From NCBI GenBank assembly GCA_000010565.1, contig AP009389.1, positions 124,001 through 188,000 on the forward strand: 64,000 bases of DNA, in the 5' to 3' direction. Both the position numbers and the translations under genes were made by a program. The notes beneath the pieces were generated by a model that saw only the letters and a list, made by a program, of their open reading frames with translations, was not told where the DNA came from and made no database searches. This document shows, piece by piece, positions 24,258 through 62,198 of this stretch. Source of the DNA: Pelotomaculum thermopropionicum SI. Lineage in GTDB: Bacteria > Bacillota > Desulfotomaculia > Desulfotomaculales > Pelotomaculaceae. Each line of letters begins with the position of its first letter. The stretch's first letter is position 1.

Positions 24258-25361
24258 ATGGTGCAAAGGGTAATCGATACCGGAGTTGAAGAAGAGGATA
24301 TTACTGGTTCGGAGAGTATAAAACAACCCTACGACCCGGGCCGGATTAATGTGGTTCGTCAGGAGATGACTGTATTTCAAGTTTTGCGGAAGATAAAAAA
24401 TAAAGAAATCAACCTCGAACCTGATTTTCAAAGGAATCTGGTTTGGGATGAGACCCGCCAAAGCAGGCTTATTGAATCAATCTTAATCCGGATTCCTTTG
24501 CCCAGTTTTTATATGGACGCCATCAACGATGATGAATGGTTAATTATTGACGGGTTGCAGCGTTTATCTACTTTGGATCGGTATGTCAATGAGGAAAAAT
24601 TTGCCCTCCAGGGCCTTGAATTTCTTGAAGAACTAAAGGATAAAAAATTTAGTCAGTTGCCGCGGAGCTATCAAAGAAGGATTGAGGAAACGCCTCTTTT
24701 TCTGTACATTATCAGACCGGAGACTCCTTCCGAGGCAAAGTTTACTATTTTCAGGAGAATAAACACAGGCGGAATGGTTCTGACTGCCCAGGAGATACGT
24801 CATTGTTTGTACCGGGGTAAATCAACGGAATTACTTAAAGAACTGGCATCTTCTCCGGAATTTCGAAAGGCTACAAGCAATTCTGTTTCGCCTGCCCGGA
24901 TGGATGACCGGGAGTGCGTCATTCGTTTTTTTGCTTTTTATCTGACTCCTTATTATGAATACCAAAAGCGTGACTTTGATTATTTTCTTGGTGATACAAT
25001 GGTCAAAATTAACCAGATGCCAGATAATAAAATTACACAAATATCGAAAGCTTTTAAAGACGCAATGGCTAAGGCGGAAGCGGTTTTTGGGGAAAATGCC
25101 TTCAGAAAGCCGAAAGGAAAAGATCAACGTGCGCGTAATCCGATTAATAAAGCGTTATTTGAAGCCTGGTCAGTATGCCTGCAGAAATACCCGCTGGATG
25201 TCCTGGTGAAAAATAAGGAAAAGATTAATAAAAGATTTATTTATTACATGAATAATGATCCGGAATTTGTCAACTCTATCTCTCAAGGTACAGGAGAAGT
25301 TAAAAAAGTACATAAACGCTTCGAAATTATTGAAAAGATTATCAGGGAGGTAATCAATTGA
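24258..25361 (+). CDS. DUF262 domain protein (ParB-like nuclease fold)
   Basis: 367 residues. The N-terminal region has LEPDFQRNLVWDE and LIIDGLQRLSTLDRY, the paired motifs of the DUF262/GmrS-N family (D-G-Q-R box, here DGLQR). DUF262 proteins are frequent in restriction and phage-defence islands, either as nucleotide-dependent nucleases (GmrSD) or regulators. The C-terminal HNH domain (DUF1524) of GmrSD is absent; instead the protein ends in a helical region. It overlaps the following ATPase gene by 4 bases, so the two are probably translated together. ATG 24258 follows AGCAGGTGATTAGG. Confidence 0.85.
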   Translation: MVQRVIDTGVEEEDITGSESIKQPYDPGRINVVRQEMTVFQVLRKIKNKEINLEPDFQRNLVWDETRQSRLIESILIRIPLPSFYMDAINDDEWLIIDGLQRLSTLDRYVNEEKFALQGLEFLEELKDKKFSQLPRSYQRRIEETPLFLYIIRPETPSEAKFTIFRRINTGGMVLTAQEIRHCLYRGKSTELLKELASSPEFRKATSNSVSPARMDDRECVIRFFAFYLTPYYEYQKRDFDYFLGDTMVKINQMPDNKITQISKAFKDAMAKAEAVFGENAFRKPKGKDQRARNPINKALFEAWSVCLQKYPLDVLVKNKEKINKRFIYYMNNDPEFVNSISQGTGEVKKVHKRFEIIEKIIREVIN

Positions 25362-26449
25362 TTGCTTATATCCGGCTGCAGCGGTTTAAATGTTTTCTGG
25401 ATCAGATTGTCCAGTTTGCGCCGTTAAGTATTCTCTGCGGAACCAATAATACCGGGAAATCGACCGTTATCCAAGCCTTATTATTTTTAAGGCAATCGGC
25501 AATGACGGGTAATTTTGCGAAAGCAGACTTGCCGCTTAACGGTCCTCTGGTTCATATGGGAACCGCGAGGGATCTTTTTTGCCAATGGGCAGAAGAAGAT
25601 AACATCCAGATTTCGGTAGCTTTCTCCGATCTGCCCGATCGTATTTTAACCTGCAAATTAGCCTATCGCCGGGAAGATCATGATGCACTTTCGATGAAAT
25701 TAATGGAAAGCCCGTCCGATCTCCCTTCAAGCTCACTTTTCGCAGACAGATTTTTTTATCTTGGCGCCGAGAGAATGGGACCACAGTTGGTTTATCCGGT
25801 CAGTGAAGATTCTCTGGAAACCATGCACGTTGGATTTCGTGGGGAGTATACCGCCCATTGCCTGCATCAATTTGGAAACAAAAAGATAAAATTACCCCAA
25901 TTAAAACATTCACCGGAAGATCATTCCATCGAATTATTGTTTCAGGTAGAGGAATGGCTTAAGGATATGCTTCCGGGAGGGATAATGATCAATCCCGATC
26001 GGATTACGCAAGCCGATATCTTGCAGGTTAGCTTTCGCGACTCCGAAAGAAATACAGATTATTTGCGGCCGACAAGCATCGGCTTTGGCATTTCATATTG
26101 TCTGCCCATAATTGTGGCCGGGCTCATGGCGGAAAAGGATAATCTGCTGATCGTAGAAAATCCGGAAGCGCACTTGCATCCCCAGGCACAATCCCGGATG
26201 GGTATTTTTTTAAGCAAACTGGCGGCGGCGGGTGTCCAGGTAATCTTGGAAACACACAGCGACCATTTGTTGAATGGGGTCAGGATAGCGGTAAAAAAAG
26301 GTTACATTGATGAAAAGTACGTTTCAATTAACTTTTTTGAGCGGGATTATAATATCGTCCGTCCAGCAATAGATGCCTACGGGAGAATAGATCTATGGCC
26401 GGATGGTTTTTTTGACCAGGCAGAAAAGGACCTTGGGGAGTTGATTTAG
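25358..26449 (+). CDS. DUF3696 / AAA-type ATPase (OLD-like)
   Basis: 363 residues: RFKCFLDQ, then Walker A CGTNNTGKSTVI (about 28-39), signature region near PTSIGFGISYCLPII, Walker B LIVENPEAHLHPQAQS near 265, and switch histidine ILETHSDHLLNGVR. The C-terminal 60 residues (FFDQAEKDLGELI at the end) correspond to DUF3696. These ATPases are small SMC/ABC-like proteins without a long coiled coil and are common partners in abortive-infection-type loci. The start overlaps the DUF262 gene by 4 bases, and its stop overlaps the next start (TAGTG). Confidence 0.88.
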   Translation: MIAYIRLQRFKCFLDQIVQFAPLSILCGTNNTGKSTVIQALLFLRQSAMTGNFAKADLPLNGPLVHMGTARDLFCQWAEEDNIQISVAFSDLPDRILTCKLAYRREDHDALSMKLMESPSDLPSSSLFADRFFYLGAERMGPQLVYPVSEDSLETMHVGFRGEYTAHCLHQFGNKKIKLPQLKHSPEDHSIELLFQVEEWLKDMLPGGIMINPDRITQADILQVSFRDSERNTDYLRPTSIGFGISYCLPIIVAGLMAEKDNLLIVENPEAHLHPQAQSRMGIFLSKLAAAGVQVILETHSDHLLNGVRIAVKKGYIDEKYVSINFFERDYNIVRPAIDAYGRIDLWPDGFFDQAEKDLGELI

Positions 26450-27393
26450 TGAATATATTTTTGAACGAACTTTCTTTTTGTGGGCAGGCCTCTAATAAAT
26501 ACCAGGGCGCACAATTAATGAGTGATATGCTAAAGGTATTAAAAATTTTGCAACAAATTTCTAACAAACCAATTGCTACTTCCAGTATCCTGTGGGAAAA
26601 GAAAATTGGACCTCAATATTCTGTACGTGATTATATCTTCGATCGAAGTATTGACCAGGCGGTACGAAATTATTTCCAGATAATAACGACCAAAGGACCA
26701 TATATTGAATGTCTTTTTAGTCAGTCGCTTGATAAACATAAATGTTATCTACAAAATGAAAACATCCTGGATGTTTCCTGGACTTCTGTAGCTGCGGCAT
26801 TCTTCTTTGATGGTATTCTGGCAAGCTTAAAGGGAGCGCCACAATTTGCTTCCGAAACAATAAATGTATTCTGTTGTTTAAAAGGTGCCGAACAGCAGGA
26901 AGCCGATATAATTAATCAGTACAACCCTGATCAAGCAGAATCCTTCGTGAGAAATTTTTTGCGGCAAAACCTGAATTCATGGGAAAATTTATGGCATAGT
27001 CGTAGCGCTCTTTTTCCTGAAATTACTTTTTGTGAGGAGGTTAAAGGTCAATTGCAGAGCTCAAATTATTCCCATTCGGTACTTCAAAAAATCATCCGCC
27101 ATCTTGATTGCATGAACAAATACATGAAGGCAATCAGATCTGGTAAAATCAAGGCACCAAATTACACCCAGATGGGTATAGAAGCTTCGCAGGAATCGGA
27201 AATTACCTTAAAGCATTATGGCCATCTTCGGACCTTTAAATGTCCTGATGGTAAAAAAAGGGTATTTAGCTGGCACAGCAAAATTAAGGGAAAGGTGAAC
27301 CTCCGCATCTATTTTTACCCACCCGATAAGGAAAATGAACATTTTCTGATTGGTTATATCGGTAGACATCTTCCTATATGGACAGAGAAATAG
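26449..27393 (+). CDS. unrecognised protein, third gene of the DUF262-DUF3696 operon
   Basis: 314 residues starting with GTG at 26449, sharing one base with the upstream stop codon. No family is recognised. The first 200 residues are mostly helical. The last 80 contain FKCPDGKKRVFSWHSKI then NLRIYFYPP, and FLIGYIGRHLPI, a pattern (H, then RI-Y-F, then IG-IG-HL) reminiscent of RelE/HigB-type mRNA interferases or their structural relatives. The overlap with the ATPase gene suggests it is the effector or partner of a three-gene defence unit. This is inference; the catalytic residues are not established. Confidence 0.75.
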   Translation: MNIFLNELSFCGQASNKYQGAQLMSDMLKVLKILQQISNKPIATSSILWEKKIGPQYSVRDYIFDRSIDQAVRNYFQIITTKGPYIECLFSQSLDKHKCYLQNENILDVSWTSVAAAFFFDGILASLKGAPQFASETINVFCCLKGAEQQEADIINQYNPDQAESFVRNFLRQNLNSWENLWHSRSALFPEITFCEEVKGQLQSSNYSHSVLQKIIRHLDCMNKYMKAIRSGKIKAPNYTQMGIEASQESEITLKHYGHLRTFKCPDGKKRVFSWHSKIKGKVNLRIYFYPPDKENEHFLIGYIGRHLPIWTEK

Positions 27394-27453
27394 TATGATT
27401 TCCCTGTAAAAAAACCTCCGCCGCATTACAAGAACTTCTCATCTGGTAATACA

Positions 27454-28683
27454 TTGCTAAAAGAAGCCATATATATTGACCAGCACGGAAGCAAAAAGGT
27501 TTTTCATCTTTGCAAATTGATTTTAACGGTGGAAACGAAAATGGAAGCTGATCAAATCAGGGATTTGATAGTAAACAACCTGACACTGCAGGGCTTTCTC
27601 TTGAAAGATGGAAAAATATTGCCCCCGGAAAACCTGGGCAAGGAAAATATTCGTTCTTTACACCAGATGGCGGTTAAACATAAAATTGAAAGAGGAAAGA
27701 AGGAGCTGTGGCGTAAAGAACCGCATTTCCTGAAAAAGATTGCTTCCGGCAAAGAGGTTGTCCCGGAGCAAATTTCGCCGCGGCTCGTTGAAGTATTGCC
27801 GGATTCGGAGGAAGAGCTTCTTTTCCGTTATATCAGCCTGCATTGGAGCATCCCTGTTTCCTCGGGATACGGCCGGCGGTTGAGGTTTTTAGTGTGTGAT
27901 GAGCAAAATGATAAACTGATCGGGATTATCGGCCTCGGCGACCCGGTCTTCAGCCTGGCTGCCCGGGATCAGTGGGTTGGCTGGGATAGAGAAACCCGGC
28001 GTTATCGCCTCAAATATGTTATGGATGCCTTTGTCCTGGGGGCCGTGCCGCCGTACTCCTTTTTGTTGGGCGGCAAACTTGTGGCCATGCTTGCCGCCAG
28101 CAACGAGGTGCGCGCTGCTTTTGGCAGGAAATACAGCGGCGCAAAATCTGTGATCAGCGGGGAAGAGTTTGACGGGCGCCTGGCGATGCTTACCACTGCC
28201 TCGGCTCTGGGGCGCTCCTCGATTTACAACCGCCTTAAGTATTGCGAAAGGCATTTATATAAAAGTGTCGGCTTCACGAGGGGATCCGGGGAGTTTCATT
28301 TCTTTAACGGCCTGTACAATGCTATCTTCGCTTACGCTGCGCAGCACAGTACTCCCACGGCCAAACAGGAGTCCTGGGGAAACGGGTTTCGAAACCGGCG
28401 GGAAGTAATCAGAAAATGCCTGCAATCCCTGGGACTGTCGGCTGACTGGTTATACCACGGGGTGGCCCGGGAAATTTTCGTCGTCCCATTAGCCGAAAAT
28501 ACAAGGGAATTTTTGCGTGGCGAAGATCTGGATTTGGTTGCGTACGATCAACCGGCTGCTGCCCTGGCCAGTTATTTTCGCGAGCGGTGGCTTCTTCCAA
28601 GGGCCGGGCGGGACAGGCGTTACCGGGAATTTGACGCTTCTTCTTATTGCCTCTGGGGAAGAGGGGAATCTGATGACGAATGA
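27454..28683 (+). CDS. DruA-like protein (DUF4338)
   Basis: 409 residues from TTG 27454, or 380 from ATG 27541, which has a better ribosome site (GGTGG). The DUF4338 core is clear: SSGYGRRLRFLVCDEQ, then LIGIIGLGDPVFSLAARDQW, VGWDRETRRYRLKYVMDAFV, and GKLVAMLAASNEVRAAF. DUF4338 is the domain of DruA in Druantia phage-defence systems, whose biochemical activity is not settled. Here no druE helicase is nearby; instead the stop overlaps a NurA nuclease gene by 11 bases and a HerA ATPase gene follows. This puts DUF4338 in a different, compact three-gene context. Confidence 0.85.
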   Translation: MLKEAIYIDQHGSKKVFHLCKLILTVETKMEADQIRDLIVNNLTLQGFLLKDGKILPPENLGKENIRSLHQMAVKHKIERGKKELWRKEPHFLKKIASGKEVVPEQISPRLVEVLPDSEEELLFRYISLHWSIPVSSGYGRRLRFLVCDEQNDKLIGIIGLGDPVFSLAARDQWVGWDRETRRYRLKYVMDAFVLGAVPPYSFLLGGKLVAMLAASNEVRAAFGRKYSGAKSVISGEEFDGRLAMLTTASALGRSSIYNRLKYCERHLYKSVGFTRGSGEFHFFNGLYNAIFAYAAQHSTPTAKQESWGNGFRNRREVIRKCLQSLGLSADWLYHGVAREIFVVPLAENTREFLRGEDLDLVAYDQPAAALASYFRERWLLPRAGRDRRYREFDASSYCLWGRGESDDE

Positions 28684-29821
28684 ACAGACGCCTTTTGTGG
28701 ACCTTCCGGCAGCGCTGGTCGAGGAAGTGATGGAGCAAACGGCGGCGGTGGGTGAGCTGCTGCTGAAAACTTTTCGAAAAATGAAAAACAATCAGGATCA
28801 ATACCGTAGGCGCCTGATTGAAAAGGGAATTATTCGCCATGAATCTTCCCTGGGATATCCCCCTTTACCGACCACCTGCGGCACTGATGGTTCATATGCA
28901 GTCGAACGTCTTCTGTCGGCTGACCTCGTTGCCGCCGCCGCGGTAGCTGTAGAAGGCTTGACTCCTCCTTCTGAAAAGCGTTACTGGGAGCAGCCGCACC
29001 ACATTTCCTACGTTAAATCCGAAGTGCATCACCCGGATACGGCGACAATTTTGCGAGCGCTGATGCTTGGCAGCGAACTGCTTTTGGCTGAAAAAGCCCC
29101 CCATGATCTGGTTATGATCGACGGCACCCTGACCATGCCGGTAATCTACTTCAACCAGGCACTGAACAAAGCGCCAGAAACGCCGGAACTATCCTGCGCA
29201 AAGGACTTTTTGGATAACGCCGTTAATTACCTGAAGGCATATTTAGCTATTTTAAATAATAAACGCAGCGATCGAAATTATGTTGGTTTACCTAAATATT
29301 CGAGCCGGCGGGAAATAGGCAAGGCAATGGGCTGGCCCGTGCATCATGACGACAGGGGATTACTAACTATCTTGCTCGAAGCAGGAGAATTTACCAAACC
29401 TCTGCCCATGGAGCAACCGGATCAGCCGTGGCATTTCAATACTGCCAGACTTGCTGCCGAGATTAAGAGGGCCGTTGATGAAATAGCGGAAGAGGTTATT
29501 TACAGCTTGCAAAATTTATATGTCTTTTATTACAAGCCGCACGACTGGATACCCGCTTTGCGGTGTGAGGTGGCGCAAAATCTTGCCGTTAATAATTACC
29601 GCCTGGCTACCGTAATTCAGGGGATCAAGCATCAGTGTGCTTGCGCTGGCATGTTCGAACCATATCCCCTTTATCTGGCGGATCGCTCGGTTAAAGCGCT
29701 GGCGCGGGCGATCCCGGCTTTCCGCCAGGTGACCACCCAGCAAATTTCCGAGAAATACGAAGGGGATATCGGGGAAATATTTTTTGCCATGCATGGTTAC
29801 CGAAGCGAGTCAGGAGTGTAA
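28673..29821 (+). CDS. NurA-domain nuclease
   Basis: 382 residues from ATG 28673, which overlaps the DruA-like gene by 11 bases; the frame extends upstream but only through DruA-coding DNA. NurA motifs are TCGTDGSYAVERLLSADLVA (first metal aspartate near residue 70) and DLVMIDGTLTMP (second aspartate near 148), with a C-terminal RLATVIQGIKH and PLYLADRSVKALA segment. NurA is a 5'-3' exonuclease/endonuclease that works with the HerA hexameric ATPase in DNA-end resection. The herA-like gene follows after 5 bases, consistent with a nuclease-translocase pair. Confidence 0.85.
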   Translation: MTNEQTPFVDLPAALVEEVMEQTAAVGELLLKTFRKMKNNQDQYRRRLIEKGIIRHESSLGYPPLPTTCGTDGSYAVERLLSADLVAAAAVAVEGLTPPSEKRYWEQPHHISYVKSEVHHPDTATILRALMLGSELLLAEKAPHDLVMIDGTLTMPVIYFNQALNKAPETPELSCAKDFLDNAVNYLKAYLAILNNKRSDRNYVGLPKYSSRREIGKAMGWPVHHDDRGLLTILLEAGEFTKPLPMEQPDQPWHFNTARLAAEIKRAVDEIAEEVIYSLQNLYVFYYKPHDWIPALRCEVAQNLAVNNYRLATVIQGIKHQCACAGMFEPYPLYLADRSVKALARAIPAFRQVTTQQISEKYEGDIGEIFFAMHGYRSESGV

Positions 29822-29826
29822 CTGGC

Positions 29827-31578
29827 ATGCCGCTAAAACTGAATGAGTTAATCGATTCGACAGAAAAACTGGGAGTAGTGGGTTCTCCTTCTTCGACTTC
29901 GAAACTGGCCTTAGACATTCTGGGAGCCGCCGTTACGCGCAAGCTGGTCGGGGAGTTGGCGCTTTTCCGGTTTATCCAGGATTCGTCTCCTCATTTTGCT
30001 TTGGGCCAGATTACGGAAGTGCAACTCCGGAATGTATGGCACGAAGATCCCACAATGCGGAGCCTGATCCGGCAGCGGGGAAAAGTGGACGCCGTTAGCG
30101 AACGGCAGGATACCCATTTAGGCCAGTTAGTCGTTAGCGCCGTTTTTAAACAAGGTGGGCTTGCCGGATACGAGCCGAGCATTTTAGGGACGGTTCCGTC
30201 CACCGGGACACCTATTCACATTGTAACTGATGAGATTTTAGAAGAAATTCTCAGCCCCTATAAAGAACAAATTTTTTACCTGGGGCACGTTTACGGCTCC
30301 CAACCCAAATTGCCGCTTTGGTTCAAGCACTTCGACCGCGGCCCCGACGGCGCCGGGGAAGCTTACCATTTGGGTATATTCGGAAAGACCGGTTCGGGTA
30401 AATCCGTATTGGCGAAAATGATTCTCCTGGCTTACTGCCGTTACCCTCGGATGGCCCTGCTGGTAATTGATCCGCAGGGGGAATTTTCAAAAGATATGCG
30501 GCCGGGGGGCGCCGGCGGCGAATTTCCTTTGCCGGTCGGCGACCTCGCCAGAAAGCTGGGCAAACGCTGTTTCGTGATAACGGTAAAGAGTTTAATTTTA
30601 GACCGGTGGGAACTTTTTGAGCAGATCCTTTACGAATCTTTATTTTTTGAACGCCTCACCATTCCCAAGGGGGAAAACCGGGAACTGGCCTGTAGTGTTC
30701 TAGCCGAGAAGCTTCAGAAGGCAAAGGTTAAGCTGGCCGATCTTTACACCCGGCAATCGTTTGCCAAAGCCTGGGATTTTTTAAAAGACGACAAGGTGCA
30801 AAAAAATTTTTACCGTAGTGAAACGCCGCGGGCACGGTTTAACAATACCATTGAAGAATCTGATGCGGATGAGTTTTACCGGGAATACTGGCTGCCGGTA
30901 GCAGAACTATTTAGAGAGGACAGGGAAAAGGCGAGAAGCGTTGAGAAAGCCTTAAGCTGGCTGCTCAAGGCGGACGAAGAAAACCGGCCGATTCTGGTAG
31001 TTAATCTTTCTAAAGAACAAACCAGCGGCATATTCTGGAACGATAAAATCCAGTCCCTGGTCATCAAGCGCGTCCTCGATGGGCTGACCCAGACGGCGGA
31101 ACATTTTTACCAGGAGGGGCAAAGTTTAAACACTCTGGTGGTGATTGATGAAGCCCACCGCCTTGCCCCGCGCGAGATTCCGAAAGAAGACGACGCCGCC
31201 CGGGCAGTGCGGAATGTGCTGGTGGACGCTGCCCGCACCACCCGGAAATACGGCCTGGGCTGGCTTTTTATCAGTCAAACCCTGTCCAGCCTGCATAGTG
31301 AGATTCTGCAGCAATTGCGGATATTTTTCTTCGGTTTCGGCCTTGGCCTTGGTCAGGAATTCCAGTCGCTGAGGCAATTGGTAGGTTCGTCCGGGACGGC
31401 CCTGGATCTTTACCAGTTGTTTCGCGACCCGCACTCCGCCTTCGATGTTGCCAGCCGGCAATATTCGTTTATGACTATTGGGCCCGTGAGCCCGCTGTCG
31501 TTTTCCGGCAGTCCTTTGTTTTTCAACGCTTTTAATACAGTCAGCGCTTTTTTGAAAGCGAATGCTTTAGAAACTTAA
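29827..31578 (+). CDS. HerA/FtsK-like DNA translocase ATPase (DUF87)
   Basis: 583 residues. An N-terminal beta-barrel-like domain (about 1-150) is followed by Walker A GIFGKTGSGKSVL near 183-195, LLVIDPQGEF, a helical insertion with FYREYWLPVAELFRED, Walker B TLVVIDEAHRLAP near 436-448, and TTRKYGLGWLFISQTL. This is the HerA family: hexameric ATPases that pump DNA and stimulate NurA. In bacteria HerA homologues also pair with Sir2 or DUF4297 effectors in phage defence. Its operon with DUF4338 and NurA suggests one complex. ATG 29827 follows AGGAGTG at close spacing. Confidence 0.9.
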   Translation: MPLKLNELIDSTEKLGVVGSPSSTSKLALDILGAAVTRKLVGELALFRFIQDSSPHFALGQITEVQLRNVWHEDPTMRSLIRQRGKVDAVSERQDTHLGQLVVSAVFKQGGLAGYEPSILGTVPSTGTPIHIVTDEILEEILSPYKEQIFYLGHVYGSQPKLPLWFKHFDRGPDGAGEAYHLGIFGKTGSGKSVLAKMILLAYCRYPRMALLVIDPQGEFSKDMRPGGAGGEFPLPVGDLARKLGKRCFVITVKSLILDRWELFEQILYESLFFERLTIPKGENRELACSVLAEKLQKAKVKLADLYTRQSFAKAWDFLKDDKVQKNFYRSETPRARFNNTIEESDADEFYREYWLPVAELFREDREKARSVEKALSWLLKADEENRPILVVNLSKEQTSGIFWNDKIQSLVIKRVLDGLTQTAEHFYQEGQSLNTLVVIDEAHRLAPREIPKEDDAARAVRNVLVDAARTTRKYGLGWLFISQTLSSLHSEILQQLRIFFFGFGLGLGQEFQSLRQLVGSSGTALDLYQLFRDPHSAFDVASRQYSFMTIGPVSPLSFSGSPLFFNAFNTVSAFLKANALET

Positions 31579-32067: not shown

Positions 32068-33543
32068 CTATAAGTTGAAGTCCACCTCGACCCTGTTGTT
32101 GCTGTACACTTTAACCGCCTTTACCGTGTTGACGACTATCTCCCGGCGCTCTTCGGCGGTAGCGTTTTCCCAGATGCGGGGGAAGTCCTGTAAAATTCCC
32201 ATCATTTCCTCAACGCTCGTCTGCCGCTCCTTTCCTTCCTTAAGCCGGGATTCCATTTCAGCAATTTGCCCCCGAAGGTAGGCCTTTCTCTGGTGCAAGC
32301 CTTTCACCCTTTCCGTCAACTGGTCCCCCTCCAGGGCCCCCTTCTCGAAGGCATCATACCATCTTTCCAGTTTTTTTTCTGTGGCGGCCAGGTCCTTGCG
32401 GGCCTGTGCCAATTCTCTCAGGAAAGCCCTGTTATCGGCGGCCGCCAGAGCCTCCTCTAAAGCCCGGCGGAGCAGGCGCCGGTCGTAGCTGTAGCAAAAC
32501 AGCTCCCGGAGCACCTGTTCCTCTACGGCGCCGCCGTGTTTATAGCCGCAGCGGCAGGTTGGATTTCTCACCATATGGCCGCCGGCCCGGTCCTGGCTGT
32601 AGCAAACGTAGTAGCGGGTGACTTTTTTGGGGTTGGTATTGGGGTGGTTCTGCCACACGTTTTTCACCCGCATCCTGGCGCCGCACTCGCCGCACCAGAT
32701 GATTCCGGAAAGCAGGCCGGTGTGCACCGCCGCTGCCGCCCGGACGGCCCCCCTGCTTTTGATTAGCTTTTGCACCTCCTGCCACTTTTCCGGACTGACG
32801 ATGGGGTCGTGCCTGCCTGGATAGAGGTTTTCCCTGTGCCTGATCAGGCCGGCGTAAACCGGGTTGGTCAGAATTTTTCGCACGAATGCCTTGTTCCACT
32901 TCTCATTTGTAGGGCCGGGTACGCCCGTGTGCTCCAGTTCTTCAGCAATATGCCGGTAGTTGGGTGCCCCTGACAGGTACCGGTCGTAAATCCACCTTAC
33001 CGTCCCGGCCTGGACCTCGTCTACCTCCAGGCGCTTTGTTTCAAAGTTGTGGCGGTAGCCGTAGGGCGCCGGCCCGCCCATAAACCGCCCCTGTTTTGCG
33101 CTTTCCTTTTTGGCCATGCGCACCCGCTCCACAATGGTTTCCCGCTCCAGCTGGGCGAAAACGGCCATCATGCCCAGGGCGGCCTTGCCGAAGGGGGTGG
33201 TGGTGTCGAAGCTTTCCGTGACCGACTTAAACCCCACGCCGCCGGGCTCGAAGACGTCCTCCAGGAGGAAGAGCACGTCTTTCTGGCGCCGCGAGAGGCG
33301 GTCGAGTTTCAGCACCAGCACGGTGTCGAATTTTTTTGCGCCGGTGTCGCCGATCAGCCGCCGCATGGCCGGCCGGTCGAGGTCCTTGCCGCTGTAGCCG
33401 TCGTCTATATAGAAACCGTATATATTCCAGCCCTGCGACCGGCAGAAGGCCAGCAGGCGGGATTTTTGGGCCGGTATGGAAATGCCCTGCTCGGCCTGTT
33501 CGTCGGTGGAAACGCGGATGTAGCAGGCCACGGTGTTGGACAT
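32068..33543 (-). CDS. large serine recombinase
   Basis: 491 residues from ATG 33543 (GAGGTGG upstream). The resolvase domain begins YIRVSTDEQAEQG with catalytic serine near residue 12 and includes LDRLSRRQKDVLFLLE and AVFAQLERETIVERVR. A Recombinase domain (GYRHNFETKRLEV... NKAFVRKILTNPVYAGLIRH) and a zinc-ribbon (CGECGARM ... CRCGYKH) follow, then a C-terminal coiled coil (about 390-460). Such enzymes integrate and excise mobile elements. It lies inside the island, not at its border, so it may belong to an older nested element. It looks intact. Confidence 0.93.
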   Translation of the reverse strand: MSNTVACYIRVSTDEQAEQGISIPAQKSRLLAFCRSQGWNIYGFYIDDGYSGKDLDRPAMRRLIGDTGAKKFDTVLVLKLDRLSRRQKDVLFLLEDVFEPGGVGFKSVTESFDTTTPFGKAALGMMAVFAQLERETIVERVRMAKKESAKQGRFMGGPAPYGYRHNFETKRLEVDEVQAGTVRWIYDRYLSGAPNYRHIAEELEHTGVPGPTNEKWNKAFVRKILTNPVYAGLIRHRENLYPGRHDPIVSPEKWQEVQKLIKSRGAVRAAAAVHTGLLSGIIWCGECGARMRVKNVWQNHPNTNPKKVTRYYVCYSQDRAGGHMVRNPTCRCGYKHGGAVEEQVLRELFCYSYDRRLLRRALEEALAAADNRAFLRELAQARKDLAATEKKLERWYDAFEKGALEGDQLTERVKGLHQRKAYLRGQIAEMESRLKEGKERQTSVEEMMGILQDFPRIWENATAEERREIVVNTVKAVKVYSNNRVEVDFNL

Positions 33544-33651
33544 GAGTGCCACCTCGAAAATGATTGCCCGGTTTGGCCGGGCAAGTTATGGGCTTTTATC
33601 CAAAAAAACAGGGTAATGATAGCTGTGGTTTTGTGCGTGCCGGAAAAAAAG

Positions 33652-35640: not shown

Positions 35641-36648
35641 ATGTCAACCATTTTCGGTAGGCCCACAGGGCTATTTTTTAGTTATGACGCTATATTTGAA
35701 CGTCACGATTTAACGACTCTACAAAAACTGGTTTATATATATTTTTGCCGGCGGGCAAATAATAACGGTCAGTCAACGCCGTCCTACGATGACATTGCGA
35801 AAGACTGTGGCTGTCACCGAAGCAGTGCTATCGAGGCTGTTAATACTTTAGGAAAAATGGGCCTAGTGGTAAAGCATAGGCGAAAGAGGCACAATGGTTC
35901 CGATACGTCTAACATGTATGTTGTTTTCCCGCCTGGTAGTCCATTCGACGGAAATAGGGAAGTAATCAATGATAACGGTAAAGCCATACCCAAAAAACCC
36001 AGTAGTTTCGAGGGGTCGTCTCAGACGACCCCAGGTAGGGTCGTCCAGGACGACCCCCGTGGGGTCGTTTCAGGCGACCCCCAGAAGGAATATAGATCTG
36101 TTGTTGTTGTTGATCAACAACCGGGCGGCGAAAAAATTTCAGACGGTGAAACCGAGAGCAGCTCTGTCGAGGACAGCGCTGCTTTTGCTTTGCCGGCCAG
36201 CGGTGAACAGGAGAGCTGCAGCCGGGCCGACCAGGCGGGCCCGGCAGAAAAGTCTACGTGGGAGAAGATTCGTGAAGACGTCCGGGCGGTAGCCGGTGTT
36301 GACATATCTGTGAGCTTCGCAAAGGAGATCGAGAAGAATTATCCACCAGAGAAGGTTTCAGTTGTCCTTGAGGAGCTTGACCGGCAGCTCGCCCAGGGCG
36401 TCGAGATCCGGGGGGTGGGAGCCTGGCTGCGGTATGCACTGGAAAATGATATACAGCCCGATCAGCCAGTCACCAGGCCAAAAACTAAAACAATTCGGTT
36501 AAAGGACGACAACAACAGGACCCCCAGAGCCAGGCCCGAAGTCAGGCCTGAGCCGGGAATAAGTTACCGCAGGACGCCGGAACAAGAACAAAAAAGAAAA
36601 GAATTCATAAAAAGTTTATATGTTGGTTACAAGCCCGGAGGAAATTAA
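35641..36648 (+). CDS. HTH_36-type replication-initiator-like protein
   Basis: 335 residues. The N-terminal 100 residues (FGRPTGLFFSYDAIFERHDL, then TPSYDDIAKDCGCHRSSAIE and AVNTLGKMGLVVKHRRKRH) form the winged helix HTH_36 found in plasmid and phage replication initiators. A low-complexity linker encoded by three palindromes (see separate entry) follows, then a C-terminal region (SFAKEIEKNYPPEKVSVVLE, GAWLRYALENDI) and a basic tail with RTPEQEQKRKEF. It begins the plasmid/phage-like half of the island. Initiator function is inferred from the domain only. Confidence 0.75.
   Translation: MSTIFGRPTGLFFSYDAIFERHDLTTLQKLVYIYFCRRANNNGQSTPSYDDIAKDCGCHRSSAIEAVNTLGKMGLVVKHRRKRHNGSDTSNMYVVFPPGSPFDGNREVINDNGKAIPKKPSSFEGSSQTTPGRVVQDDPRGVVSGDPQKEYRSVVVVDQQPGGEKISDGETESSSVEDSAAFALPASGEQESCSRADQAGPAEKSTWEKIREDVRAVAGVDISVSFAKEIEKNYPPEKVSVVLEELDRQLAQGVEIRGVGAWLRYALENDIQPDQPVTRPKTKTIRLKDDNNRTPRARPEVRPEPGISYRRTPEQEQKRKEFIKSLYVGYKPGGN
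36012..36081. repeat. three palindromes inside the initiator-like gene
   Basis: GGGGTCGTC-TCA-GACGACCCC (36012-36032), GGGTCGTC-CAG-GACGACCC (36038-36056) and GGGGTCG...CGACCCC (36061-36081). Centres are about 25 bases apart. They lie in the linker-coding part of the gene. Confidence 0.9.
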
Positions 36649-36765
36649 AACTGAAAATGGCCGGTATTACAGGAGGCTTTTCGGGCCAAGGGAGGGTGAT
36701 GCGCTTATCGGCAAAAAGTTGCGGGAAAAAGAGTCGGGTGAACTGGCTGAGGTTGTCGGGTACGA

Positions 36766-37013
36766 GGATGGAAAAATTGACAGTCAACCACCCCCGCTTG
36801 TAGAAGCGGGGGCTTGTCCTGGCGGGGACAGGGGCAACTGGCTGACTAGGCGGCAACCTTACAGTTGCAGAAGTCCGAGGGGCTACCTAATCACTTCCGG
36901 GTGTTTCGCCAGCCCGGACTATGTGAGGCAGAACCGCTAAATGCCACGTACGACCAAGACCGTATTAAGCCCCGTGGACAGCGCCGAGGCGACAATCACT
37001 CCGAAAGGAGGCC
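36766..37013 (+). ncRNA. predicted omega RNA of IsrB with guide
   Basis: About 230 bases between the element's left end and isrB contain no gene but several stems, starting with the GTAG-loop hairpin. IscB/IsrB nucleases use an RNA encoded just upstream of their gene, with the guide at its 5' end taken from flanking host DNA. The guide here should be roughly 36766-36785, ending ...TTGACAGTC. The first base after the element's right end begins GTGA, matching the NTGA motif I recall for a characterised IsrB. Secondary structure was judged by eye only. Confidence 0.65.
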
Positions 37014-38113
37014 GTGTATCGGCAAATGATTACCAGAGTTCCTGTGGTGGGCGTGGACGGAAAACCCCTCATGCCCACCACGCCAAGAAGAGCCCGCCTG
37101 TTAATACGGGACGGCCTGGCCAAACGCCGGAGAAACAAGCTGGGGCTTTTTTACGTCCAGATGCTCCGGCCAGTCGGAACCGAAACCCAACCCATGGCCC
37201 TGGCCGTGGACCCCGGCGCGAAGTACGACGGCATATCAATAGCTTCACACAAACAAATCGAACTAAAGGCGATGGTGTTCCTGCCTGTTGGCGTGCCGGA
37301 GAAGATGGAAACCCGGAGGAATCTGCGCCGGGCCAGGAGATTCAGGAACACTCCCCGCAGGCCAGCCCGTTTCGACAATCGGAGGAGGAAAGGTTACTGG
37401 TTAGCTCCCACGCAGCGTTCCAAAGTGGAATGCCGGCTGAAAGTCGTCCGGGAACTCTGCAAAGTATTCCCCGTCTGGCTCATCGTCACCGAAGACGTGC
37501 GGTTCAACCACGCCAGGAGTCGCAACGGTAAATACTTCTCCACCGTAGAGATCGGCAAGGCCCTCACTTACTTTGAGTACAAAAAGCTGGCCGAACTCAA
37601 GCTCGTGAAGGTATCCGATACCGACGCCTGGCGTGAGAGGTTCGGGTTGGTAAAGTATACGGAACGCAAGTGGGAACAAACACCCGAGACCCACGCCAAT
37701 GACGCCGTGGCGATGTTGATGGGTATAACCGGCTGCGAAAAAGCCGTCACGCCTTTCTATGTCTGGCGAAAACTCCAGTACGCCCGCCGTAGCCTGCACC
37801 GGCAGCATTTCCAGAAAGGCAGCAAAAGGCCCCTGTTCGGTGGCGCCAGCAACGGCACTTTTTTCCGCAAGGGCGACTGGGTGGAGGCAGAAAAAGCCGG
37901 AGTAAAATATCGCGGTTGGGTCTGTGGACTGCCGACGGAAACCACGAAACTGGTGGGTGTTGCGGATGCAGACGGCAAGCGGATAGGCCAGTTCAGCCCG
38001 AAGAAAGTCAGGCTGCTGGCCAGGTCAACAGGTTTTTCCTGGATAACAGCGGCATGACGATGGTCACTGCACGGCATTCCTCCCGCCGCCTGTAGAGGCG
38101 GGGGAATCCTGCC
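36786..38113 (+). mobile_element. IS200/IS605-like element carrying isrB
   Basis: A 1328-bp element with no transposase gene, so it is probably mobilised by a TnpA in trans. The left end has the hairpin CCCCCGCTT-GTAG-AAGCGGGGG (36791-36812). The right end has CCGCCT-GTAG-AGGCGG (38086-38101) with an outer stem GGC.ATTCC / GGAAT..GCC. Both hairpins share the GTAG loop. Removing exactly 36786-38113 restores the host frame, which fixes the borders to within a base or two. Confidence 0.82.
37026..38057 (+). CDS. isrB: IsrB, RNA-guided OMEGA nickase (RuvC only)
   Basis: 343 residues. The N-terminal PLMP/RRXRR domain reads GKPLMPTTPRRARLLIRDG. RuvC-I is ALAVDPGAKYDGISI, the arginine-rich bridge helix is RRNLRRARRFRNTPRRPARF, RuvC-II is LIVTEDVRFNHAR, and RuvC-III is HANDAVAML. 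No HNH domain lies between RuvC-II and RuvC-III, and the length of about 345 residues fits IsrB rather than IscB (about 490). IsrB nicks the non-target strand of DNA matched by its omega RNA guide. All three RuvC acids are present. ATG 37026 fits the protein start; GTG 37014 lies 2 bases after AAAGGAGG. Confidence 0.88.
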   Translation: MITRVPVVGVDGKPLMPTTPRRARLLIRDGLAKRRRNKLGLFYVQMLRPVGTETQPMALAVDPGAKYDGISIASHKQIELKAMVFLPVGVPEKMETRRNLRRARRFRNTPRRPARFDNRRRKGYWLAPTQRSKVECRLKVVRELCKVFPVWLIVTEDVRFNHARSRNGKYFSTVEIGKALTYFEYKKLAELKLVKVSDTDAWRERFGLVKYTERKWEQTPETHANDAVAMLMGITGCEKAVTPFYVWRKLQYARRSLHRQHFQKGSKRPLFGGASNGTFFRKGDWVEAEKAGVKYRGWVCGLPTETTKLVGVADADGKRIGQFSPKKVRLLARSTGFSWITAA

Positions 38114-38189
38114 GTGAGTTTGTTGAATTTGAAAACGGTGACTTGGAGGTGCTTGATAAGGATGATTTTGAGGGGTTTTATGAAGAGGT

Positions 38190-38417
38190 TTAATGGCGGC
38201 GGGGATCGTCGGAACGTCCCACCAGGTAGTCAAGGGATACGTCGAAAAAGTCGGCCAGGGCTATTAGCTTTTCAACAGATGGAAGGTTTTCTCCATTTGC
38301 AAATTGGCTCACGGCCGGACGGCTTACATTAATGGCGTTAGCTACCGCCTGTTTGGATAGTTTATTTTTGGTAATAAGGAAGCTTAACCTTTTCGCGAAA
38401 ATTTTTTTTGAAAACAT
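38190..38417 (-). CDS. XRE-family repressor (CI-like)
   Basis: 75 residues with a helix-turn-helix (KQAVANAINVSRPAVSQFAN) and ENLPSVEKLIALADFFDVSL, then DYLVGRSDD. It is the typical small phage/plasmid repressor without a protease domain. ATG 38417 follows GGGAG 5 bases upstream. It is divergent from a second HTH gene, with two operator palindromes between. The 3' end overlaps the terminal codon of the split gene. Confidence 0.88.
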   Translation of the reverse strand: MFSKKIFAKRLSFLITKNKLSKQAVANAINVSRPAVSQFANGENLPSVEKLIALADFFDVSLDYLVGRSDDPRRH

Positions 38418-52167: not shown

Positions 52168-53763
52168 ATGGACGAGGAGTATATGCCTGCCCACATACAG
52201 GGCAGGAAGCTTGATGTTTTGGACGACCCATCTAAAACTATTGATCAGAAAGGTATTGATGTAGGCGGGTACATAAGAATATCTACAAAAAAAGATAGTC
52301 AAAAGACCAGCATAGAAAATCAGGAAAAGCTTCTTAAGCAGTGGGCGGATGTTAACGGTTATAACCTATACCGTTGCTACACTGACGTTAAAACAGGGAA
52401 GTACATGTATTTGAGAAATGAAGTCCAGCAAATGCTTGAGGACTTAAAAGAAGGGAAAATCAGGGGAGTAGTAAGTAAGGAAATTGCCCGGACAAGCAGG
52501 GACATAATGGATGTTCTGGATTTAAAAAGAAAGATAGTTTCACTTGGAGGGTTTTTTAAAGCAATTAAGGAAAATTATGATAGCAGAACGGATGACGACG
52601 AGTTTCTGCTGGTGCTCTATGGAGCACTTGCTCAAAAGGAGCAAAAAACGACAGCAAGCAGGGTCAAGGTTACCCAACTAATAAAGGCAAAAGAGGGTAA
52701 AACAAATGTTCCCCTCCCTGCTTTTGGATACATGTTAAGTGAAGATAGACAGCGCTTAGTTAGAAATCCAGAAACATACCCGCACTATCGTTTTATGGTT
52801 GAGAGATTTATAAATGGCTGGGGACAGCTGAAGATAGCTAAATATTTGAATAAAAACGGCATACTCAGCAGGCGCGGTTGTAAATGGAGCACCTCAGCCA
52901 TTAAGACGATTCTTACAAATCCCGTTTACTTGGGGGTTACTATTTACAATACTACCACTTTAATTAGGGACCATGAGGGAAAGCAAAAGCGGGTCATGAG
53001 GCCCCGCGACGAATGGATTATTAGGTATAATACACACGAGCCATTAATCACCGAGGAAGAGTTTAAAAAAATACAGGCAATTCTCCAAGAGCGCAGTGAA
53101 AAAGACTGTAAAGAGTGGACCTGTGAAAGGAAGTATTTGGGTTCAACCTTACTTAGGTGTGCAGTTTGCGGAGGAAAGATTTACGGCTCACGCTTTATGT
53201 CAAAGAAGAAAGGAGCCGGTTATTTTTACAGATATATATGCCGGGGTGTCAACGGTAACTGCAACTCTCCTGCAAAATACTGGGATATGGAAAAGGTCGA
53301 TTGGAATATAAGAGAATTATTCCGGACTTTGTTCGGAGATAAAGAAAAATTGTTTGATTACATCCAGAAGGAGCCAGGTATATTAAACGAGGACACGTCC
53401 GAATTCTTGAAAGAAAGAGACGCTTTAATAAACAAAGTAGTCCACATTGACCGGGCTATGAAAAAGCAGCAATCAGCCTTTGAAAATGATGCCATTACAA
53501 TGGATGAATATAAGACACGTTTAGCTGAACTGAGAGCGGAAAAAAATGAGGCTTTAGCAAGGATTGGTAAACTGGACGCAAAGCTCTTGCGACATGACTC
53601 TGTAATGGACAGGCTAAAAAAAGTGCTCAATCGGGTTTCCGATAAAATTGAACGGATTCACGAATTACCTACCGAGGAGGTGGCTGAATATCTGGATGCA
53701 GTTTTCGAAAGCCTCTATTTAGGTGAAGATGGAACCATAGTTGATGTTGAGTTTAAAGACTGA
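52168..53763 (+). CDS. large serine recombinase at the island's right border
   Basis: 531 residues, ATG after GGGAG at 9 bases. A 33-residue N-terminal extension precedes the resolvase domain (GGYIRISTKKDS, catalytic serine S39; SKEIARTSRDIMDVLDLKRK; YGALAQKEQKTTASRVK). The Recombinase domain (LKIAKYLNKNGILSRRG, AIKTILTNPVYLGVTIYN), a zinc ribbon (LRCAVCGGKIYG ... CRGVNGNCNS) and a coiled coil (about 400-460) follow. The stop lies 12 bases from the border with the cotJC N-terminal fragment, the usual integrase-next-to-att arrangement. Intact; predicted to integrate and excise the element at cotJC. Confidence 0.93.
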   Translation: MDEEYMPAHIQGRKLDVLDDPSKTIDQKGIDVGGYIRISTKKDSQKTSIENQEKLLKQWADVNGYNLYRCYTDVKTGKYMYLRNEVQQMLEDLKEGKIRGVVSKEIARTSRDIMDVLDLKRKIVSLGGFFKAIKENYDSRTDDDEFLLVLYGALAQKEQKTTASRVKVTQLIKAKEGKTNVPLPAFGYMLSEDRQRLVRNPETYPHYRFMVERFINGWGQLKIAKYLNKNGILSRRGCKWSTSAIKTILTNPVYLGVTIYNTTTLIRDHEGKQKRVMRPRDEWIIRYNTHEPLITEEEFKKIQAILQERSEKDCKEWTCERKYLGSTLLRCAVCGGKIYGSRFMSKKKGAGYFYRYICRGVNGNCNSPAKYWDMEKVDWNIRELFRTLFGDKEKLFDYIQKEPGILNEDTSEFLKERDALINKVVHIDRAMKKQQSAFENDAITMDEYKTRLAELRAEKNEALARIGKLDAKLLRHDSVMDRLKKVLNRVSDKIERIHELPTEEVAEYLDAVFESLYLGEDGTIVDVEFKD

Positions 53764-61806: not shown

Positions 61807-62035
61807 AAAGGACAAGGAATTGCTTTTTTTTGGCTTAAATTAAAGATATCCCGTTCAAAAGCCATTTTTGAAGCAAAATATTGTAAAATTTTGAAACACG
61901 GTTCCAAAATGTAACATCGTTACTTTATTTTCAGGCGTCACCTGTTCAAAAGCGATACTGCCGGAAGACGCGCCATAGTGGCAAGAATATTGCTAAAGTT
62001 AATTCACGGGTTAATCTAAAAACCGGTTAAGTTAA

Positions 62036-62198
62036 AAATCTCCGAGCCGGTGAGCCTTAGCCGAAGAGGTATGGCTGCCTGGCCGTTAGGGTGCAGCGGG
62101 AAACTGTTGCGCCTCCCACTCAGGAAAGGAGAACATATGCTTTAAGATTATGTAAAGCTTCTTCCTTTTGCTTGTGGGAGGAAGCTTTAATATTTTTG
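62036..62198 (+). ncRNA. Moco (molybdenum/tungsten cofactor) riboswitch with terminator
   Basis: The conserved Moco-motif blocks appear in order: CTCCGAGCC, CCGAAGAGGTATGGCTGCC, GGGTGCAGCGGGAAACTGTT and GCGCCTCCCAC (about 62040-62119). An expression platform follows: AAAGCTTCTTCC (62154-62165) pairs with GGAGGAAGCTTT (62177-62188) and leads into ATATTTTTG, a terminator. GTGGGAGG (62174-62181) is complementary to the aptamer's CCTCCCAC (62112-62119), an alternative antiterminator pair. Moco motifs commonly control molybdenum enzymes or cofactor synthesis; here the next gene is an Fe-S/membrane oxidoreductase. Confidence 0.8.

What the first reader, a model, noticed from the sequence alone, without database searches (positions are those of the whole stretch)
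36766..38117. Intact IsrB element with precise borders, guide and adjacent NTGA motif
Removing 36786-38113 rejoins an 81-codon gene in frame (codon CGT formed across the junction). The first four bases after the element are GTGA, which fits the NTGA target-adjacent motif I recall for a characterised IsrB. So the guide (about 36766-36785) would target the healed empty site. The host-gene promoter could drive omega RNA expression. All RuvC motifs are present, HNH is absent, and no tnpA is present.
Basis: partly seen in the sequence, partly recalled or inferred. Interest (0 to 1): 0.85.

Follow-up and report, generated by a model that had tools for sequence, protein, structure and literature searches.

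The report
DtIsrB-like RNA-guided nickase insertion element
A small mobile DNA element carrying an RNA-guided DNA-nicking enzyme sits inside a short bacterial gene and carries a guide RNA aimed at the gene as it would look without the element; it is a close relative of a well-studied system, and comparison with its relatives moves both of its proposed borders.

Summary
The element is real: an isrB gene 82% identical to Desulfovirgula thermocuniculi IsrB (PDB 8DMB), preceded by an omega RNA whose fold is supported by covariation, with both terminal hairpins, inserted in a short gene. It has no HNH domain and no tnpA, and is single-copy in the genome. All 12 right ends collected, from 10 genomes, carry TTGA 10-12 bases past the conserved GGAATCCTG. 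In the window that is 38123-38126, so the GTGA at 38114-38117 lies inside the element. The idea that the guide targets the healed empty site survives with corrected parts. This is a new member of a known kind. Side results: omega-RNA-only mini-elements, and a tnpB element with the same ends in opposite orientation.

The parts
36620..36782 (+). 5' part of the interrupted host gene (54 codons plus 1 base)
   Evidence: Homologous to an uninterrupted 131-aa ORF in L027 of genome G068; joined to 38123-38193 it gives a 77-aa protein that aligns without gaps
36763..36782 (+). predicted guide segment CGAGGATGGAAAAATTGACA (20 nt of left flank)
   Evidence: In DtIsrB the 20-nt guide is followed by scaffold residue 21; 11 of 11 residues named in PMC9581776 fit L020 only if residue 21 is the G of GTCAACC
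36783..38122 (+). whole IsrB element, corrected borders, 1340 bp
   Evidence: Left end GTCAAC and right end followed by TTGA in independent insertions and in same-genome copy pairs
36783..37023 (+). omega RNA scaffold (equivalent to DtIsrB residues 21-282)
   Evidence: 8-sequence alignment; 71 pairs, 98.4% of cells paired, 15 pairs with two-sided changes, covariation 0.246 against 0.112 shuffled, 0/500
36791..36812 (+). SL1, also the left-end transposon hairpin
   Evidence: Consensus fold helix 2, with compensatory changes
36821..36824 (+). GGCG, SL2 loop side of the adaptor pseudoknot
   Evidence: Equivalent to DtIsrB residues 81-84, invariant in 8 sequences
36935..36938 (+). CGCT, SL5 side of the adaptor pseudoknot
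   Evidence: Equivalent to DtIsrB residues 194-197, invariant in 8 sequences
37014..38057 (+). isrB CDS (GTG 37014 or, as in DtIsrB numbering, ATG 37026)
   Evidence: E=3e-190 to PDB 8DMB; 82% identity; R323 and Q326 TAM-reading residues conserved (as R319 and Q322); NG86 dN 0.135, dS 1.16
38074..38111 (+). right-end hairpin GCATTCCTCCC...GGGGGAATCCTG
   Evidence: Same pattern at 11 places in 9 of 113 genomes of the class, control pattern 0
38114..38117 (.).
   Evidence: At this offset only the window has NTGA, 1 of 12 right ends
38123..38126 (+). TTGA, predicted TAM and insertion target motif
   Evidence: TTGA 10-12 bases after GGAATCCTG in 12 of 12 right ends; estimate 1.5e-22 under independent sites
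38123..38193 (+). 3' part of the interrupted host gene
   Evidence: Homologous to L027

Best explanation
This is a non-autonomous IS200/IS605-type element encoding a DtIsrB-type nickase and its omega RNA, at 36783-38122. It was inserted beside a TTGA, without target duplication, into a small gene. Shown: the ends, the motif, the conserved RNA and the conserved enzyme. Inferred: a Y1 transposase acting in trans excises it; excision joins the guide-matching flank (36763-36782) to TTGA, which recreates the target plus TAM; IsrB with its omega RNA then nicks the non-target strand of that empty site about 8-11 nt upstream of TTGA (roughly 36772-36775), and repair from the sister copy restores the element. 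The occupied donor is spared because there the guide sequence is followed by GTCA, not by a TAM.
For: 82% identity to DtIsrB with the RuvC and TAM-reading residues kept. TTGA at 12 of 12 right ends, equal to the DtIsrB TAM at 60 C (PMC9581776). Left ends and copy-pair borders agree, in the G067, G056, G070 and G073 pairs. RNA residue register and covariation. An uninterrupted homologue fits the corrected borders without a gap. A tnpB element in G019 shares both ends and the TTGA, and the ISDra2 TnpB TAM equals the TnpA target site (PMC8612924).
Against: No TnpA gene with these ends was found in the own genome or in the TnpA loci fetched from 12 relatives. Copy number is one, so recent activity here is not shown. 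Window residue H261 replaces N265 of DtIsrB, whose alanine mutant nicks less, although two lineages of relatives also have H. A retention role for a nickase, as opposed to a double-strand cutter, is not demonstrated in anything read here.
Confidence: 0.8

Rival explanations
1. One reading: element 36786-38113, guide 36766-36785, TAM GTGA.
For: It rejoins the gene in frame, and GTGA fits the NTGA preference first reported for DtIsrB.
Against: GTC is invariant and part of the scaffold stem; GTGA is not conserved while TTGA is; the healed protein needs a 4-residue gap against the homologue; the RNA register at +3 matches 2 of 11 named residues against 11 of 11.
Confidence: 0.03
2. An immobile relic: the element has lost its transposase partner and persists as a domesticated RNA-guided nickase serving the host or the prophage-like region, for example in regulation or defence.
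For: Single copy, no TnpA with matching ends found, strong purifying selection on the protein.
Against: Both transposon ends and the target motif are intact, and relatives sit at many unrelated sites, which indicates mobility in the family.
Confidence: 0.15
3. TTGA belongs to the element end rather than to the target.
For: It is present at every right end, so sequence conservation alone cannot separate the two.
Against: Removing 36783-38126 shifts the host frame; TTGA is the measured TAM of DtIsrB; IS200/IS605 elements insert next to a fixed target motif without duplication (PMC8612924).
Confidence: 0.07

Closest known systems
DtIsrB of Desulfovirgula thermocuniculi and its omega RNA (PDB 8DMB; PMC9581776; locus L020)
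   Same: Protein 82% identical; RuvC and TAM residues; omega RNA order of helices and adaptor pseudoknot sequences; left and right ends; TTGA motif
   Different: Shorter region between SL1 and SL2 in the RNA; different SL1 sequence; H instead of N at phosphate-lock position 265; different insertion site
IscB / HEARO elements
   Same: Guide from the 5' flank, PLMP and RuvC domains
   Different: No HNH domain; no Rfam HEARO match at the gathering cut-off
IS200/IS605 tnpB elements (example in G019, L041)
   Same: The same kind of two ends and the same TTGA next to the right end
   Different: tnpB lies on the opposite strand relative to the ends and appears degraded in that copy
Standalone omega RNAs reported for IscB (cited in PMC9581776)
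   Same: RNA without a linked effector gene
   Different: In G067 and G049 they are about 320-420 bp mini-elements with both ends of the IsrB element

Membership tests
IsrB (OMEGA nickase) | About 350-aa protein with PLMP, split RuvC and TI domain, no HNH | tested here: met
   343-347 aa, E=3e-190 to DtIsrB over residues 5-344; Pfam RRXRR only
IsrB (OMEGA nickase) | RuvC catalytic residues and TAM-reading R323 and Q326 | tested here: met
   D62, E156, H223, D226, R319 and Q322 present
IsrB (OMEGA nickase) | Roughly 260-nt omega RNA upstream, with SL2-SL5 adaptor pseudoknot | tested here: met
   241 nt, covarying fold, GGCG and CGCT invariant
IsrB (OMEGA nickase) | TTGA/NTGA next to the guide-matching flank once the element is removed | tested here: met
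   TTGA at 38123-38126 with corrected borders
IsrB (OMEGA nickase) | RNA-guided nicking of the non-target strand | not testable with these tools
   Needs a biochemical assay
IS200/IS605 transposon | Subterminal hairpins and fixed target motif without duplication | tested here: met
   Left and right hairpins; TTGA; copy pairs diverge at the ends
IS200/IS605 transposon | Own Y1 transposase TnpA | tested here: not met
   No Y1 match in the window; five elsewhere in the genome, none with these ends; hence called non-autonomous
IscB | HNH domain inserted in RuvC | tested here: not met
   No HNH family in Pfam; collinear with DtIsrB throughout

The most novel reading that the evidence does not exclude
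IsrB elements, omega-RNA-only mini-elements and tnpB elements in this class share one set of transposon ends and one target motif. A single transposase in trans could then mobilise all of them, and nickase-bearing copies could maintain RNA-only copies at their sites by guided nicking.
Probability: 0.3. Interest if true: 0.5.

Novelty: new member of a known kind. Interest (0 to 1): 0.3.

Why it matters
The corrected anatomy gives a native, testable guide-target-TAM set for a thermophilic IsrB very close to the structurally solved one. The survey shows that the in vitro TAM (TTGA) equals the natural insertion motif at a dozen sites. It also shows how in-frame rejoining plus a short TAM match can mislead border calls.

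Tried and rejected
(1) Rfam at gathering threshold: no omega RNA hit in the window, only a Moco riboswitch. (2) An exact 23-base match to the healed junction in a viral contig (L117) looked like an empty site; its flanks share nothing with the host gene, so it is chance. (3) Eight viral contigs matching the right-end pattern (L108-L115) are near-identical sequence without the hairpin or isrB and were discarded. (4) Search for host-gene homologues in phages, plasmids and viral contigs: none. (5) Search for a partner TnpA with the same ends among the TnpA loci fetched: none; not every TnpA of those genomes was fetched. (6) Left-flank TTGAC in the window looked like a second target motif, but it recurs in only one other left flank (G004).

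Full report
What was checked. The window is G000:C1:124001-188000 of a 3,025,375-base single-contig genome. The size matches Pelotomaculum thermopropionicum SI, from memory only. The ORF 37014-38057 matches the IsrB chain of PDB 8DMB at E=3e-190 and is 82% identical to DtIsrB over 343 aligned residues. Only Pfam RRXRR is found in it. Numbered from the ATG at 37026, D62, E156, H223 and D226 of RuvC and R319 and Q322 (DtIsrB R323 and Q326, the TAM readers) are present. N265 of DtIsrB is H here, as it is in two other lineages of relatives. NG86 dN is 0.135 and dS 1.16 against DtIsrB, so the protein has been under purifying selection. The element occurs once in the genome. Five Y1 transposases lie elsewhere in the genome, none in the window and none with these ends.

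Borders from relatives. Right ends share GCATTCCTC...hairpin...GGAATCCTG. Twelve places in 10 genomes could be collected. In all twelve, TTGA follows 10, 11 or 12 bases after GGAATCCTG. A rough estimate that treats the sites as independent gives 1.5e-22. Copies within one genome diverge at the same points: the G067 mini-elements share GTCAACC...GATC plus TTGA and then differ; the G073 pair, a more distant clade, shares everything up to TTTG plus TTGA on one side and GTCATGAACC on the other; the left ends of the G070 pair (99.9% identical copies) and of the G056 pair begin at GTCAAC. The IsrB of G014, only about 35% identical, also begins with GTCAA and is followed by TTGA.

Borders from the RNA. 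PMC9581776 names residues of the DtIsrB omega RNA (G81, C107, A108, A152, U154, U179, U183, A192, U197, G245, A246). Laid on the D. thermocuniculi locus L020, all 11 fit in one register only; every other shift within six bases fits at most 4. In that register residue 21, the first scaffold base after the 20-nt guide, is the G of GTCAACC. In the window that is 36783. The consensus fold pairs this GTC with GAC near the nexus, so it is scaffold, not guide. The fold has 98.4% of cells paired, 15 pairs with two-sided changes, and beats shuffled and slid controls. The structure was derived from the same alignment, so that comparison leans in its favour.

Borders from an uninterrupted gene. One class member, G068, has a homologue of the host gene without insertion (L027). 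Removing 36783-38122 gives a 77-aa protein that aligns without gaps (score 154). The best score of all border pairs is 155, at pairs one and two bases away, so this line alone fixes the junction only to within about two bases. No closer homologue was found in phages, plasmids or viral contigs.

How it probably works. For TnpB of ISDra2, the TAM equals the TnpA target, excision creates a donor joint that places TAM and guide match side by side, and cutting is proposed to restore the element from the sister copy (PMC8612924). The corrected anatomy here is the mirror image of that arrangement: the target motif TTGA is on the right flank and the guide comes from the left. A tnpB element in G019 carries the same kind of ends in the opposite gene orientation next to TTGA, as expected if both kinds use one type of transposase. 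[quoted passage not shown] That a nick is enough for copy-back is inference. The occupied site has GTCA after the guide match and should be spared.

Mini-elements. G067 (Desulfofundulus thermobenzoicus, L023) has two, and G049 one, short elements that keep the omega RNA and both ends but lack an intact isrB. The main isrB copy of G067 has an in-frame TGA and no recognisable right end. Standalone omega RNAs are known for IscB according to PMC9581776.

Verdict. The healed-site targeting idea is retained with corrected coordinates.

Noticed in passing
L023:4861-5180 and L067:1500-1916 (genome G067); L049:1505-1824 on the - strand (genome G049): Mini-elements of about 320-420 bp with the IsrB omega RNA and both transposon ends but no intact isrB, next to TTGA.
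   Followed up: partly
L041:211-1549 (genome G019): A degraded tnpB element with the same kind of two ends and TTGA, tnpB on the opposite strand.
   Followed up: partly
L012/L040 (genome G014): An IsrB only about 35% identical to the window's has a right-end hairpin identical to the window's over 38 bases, suggesting exchange of ends.
   Followed up: no
window 25358-31578: Cluster of NsnB-like, NsnC-like, DruA (DUF4338), NurA and HerA genes, a candidate anti-phage defence cluster.
   Followed up: no
window 32068-33552 (-), 52168-53763 (+): Two large serine recombinases flank a region with phage-like replication, repressor-like and terminase-like genes; the host gene lies in it.
   Followed up: no
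window 62028-62147 (+): Molybdenum cofactor riboswitch, 74.9 bits.
   Followed up: no
L117:1115-1137: Chance exact 23-base match to the healed junction in an unrelated AT-rich viral contig.
   Followed up: yes
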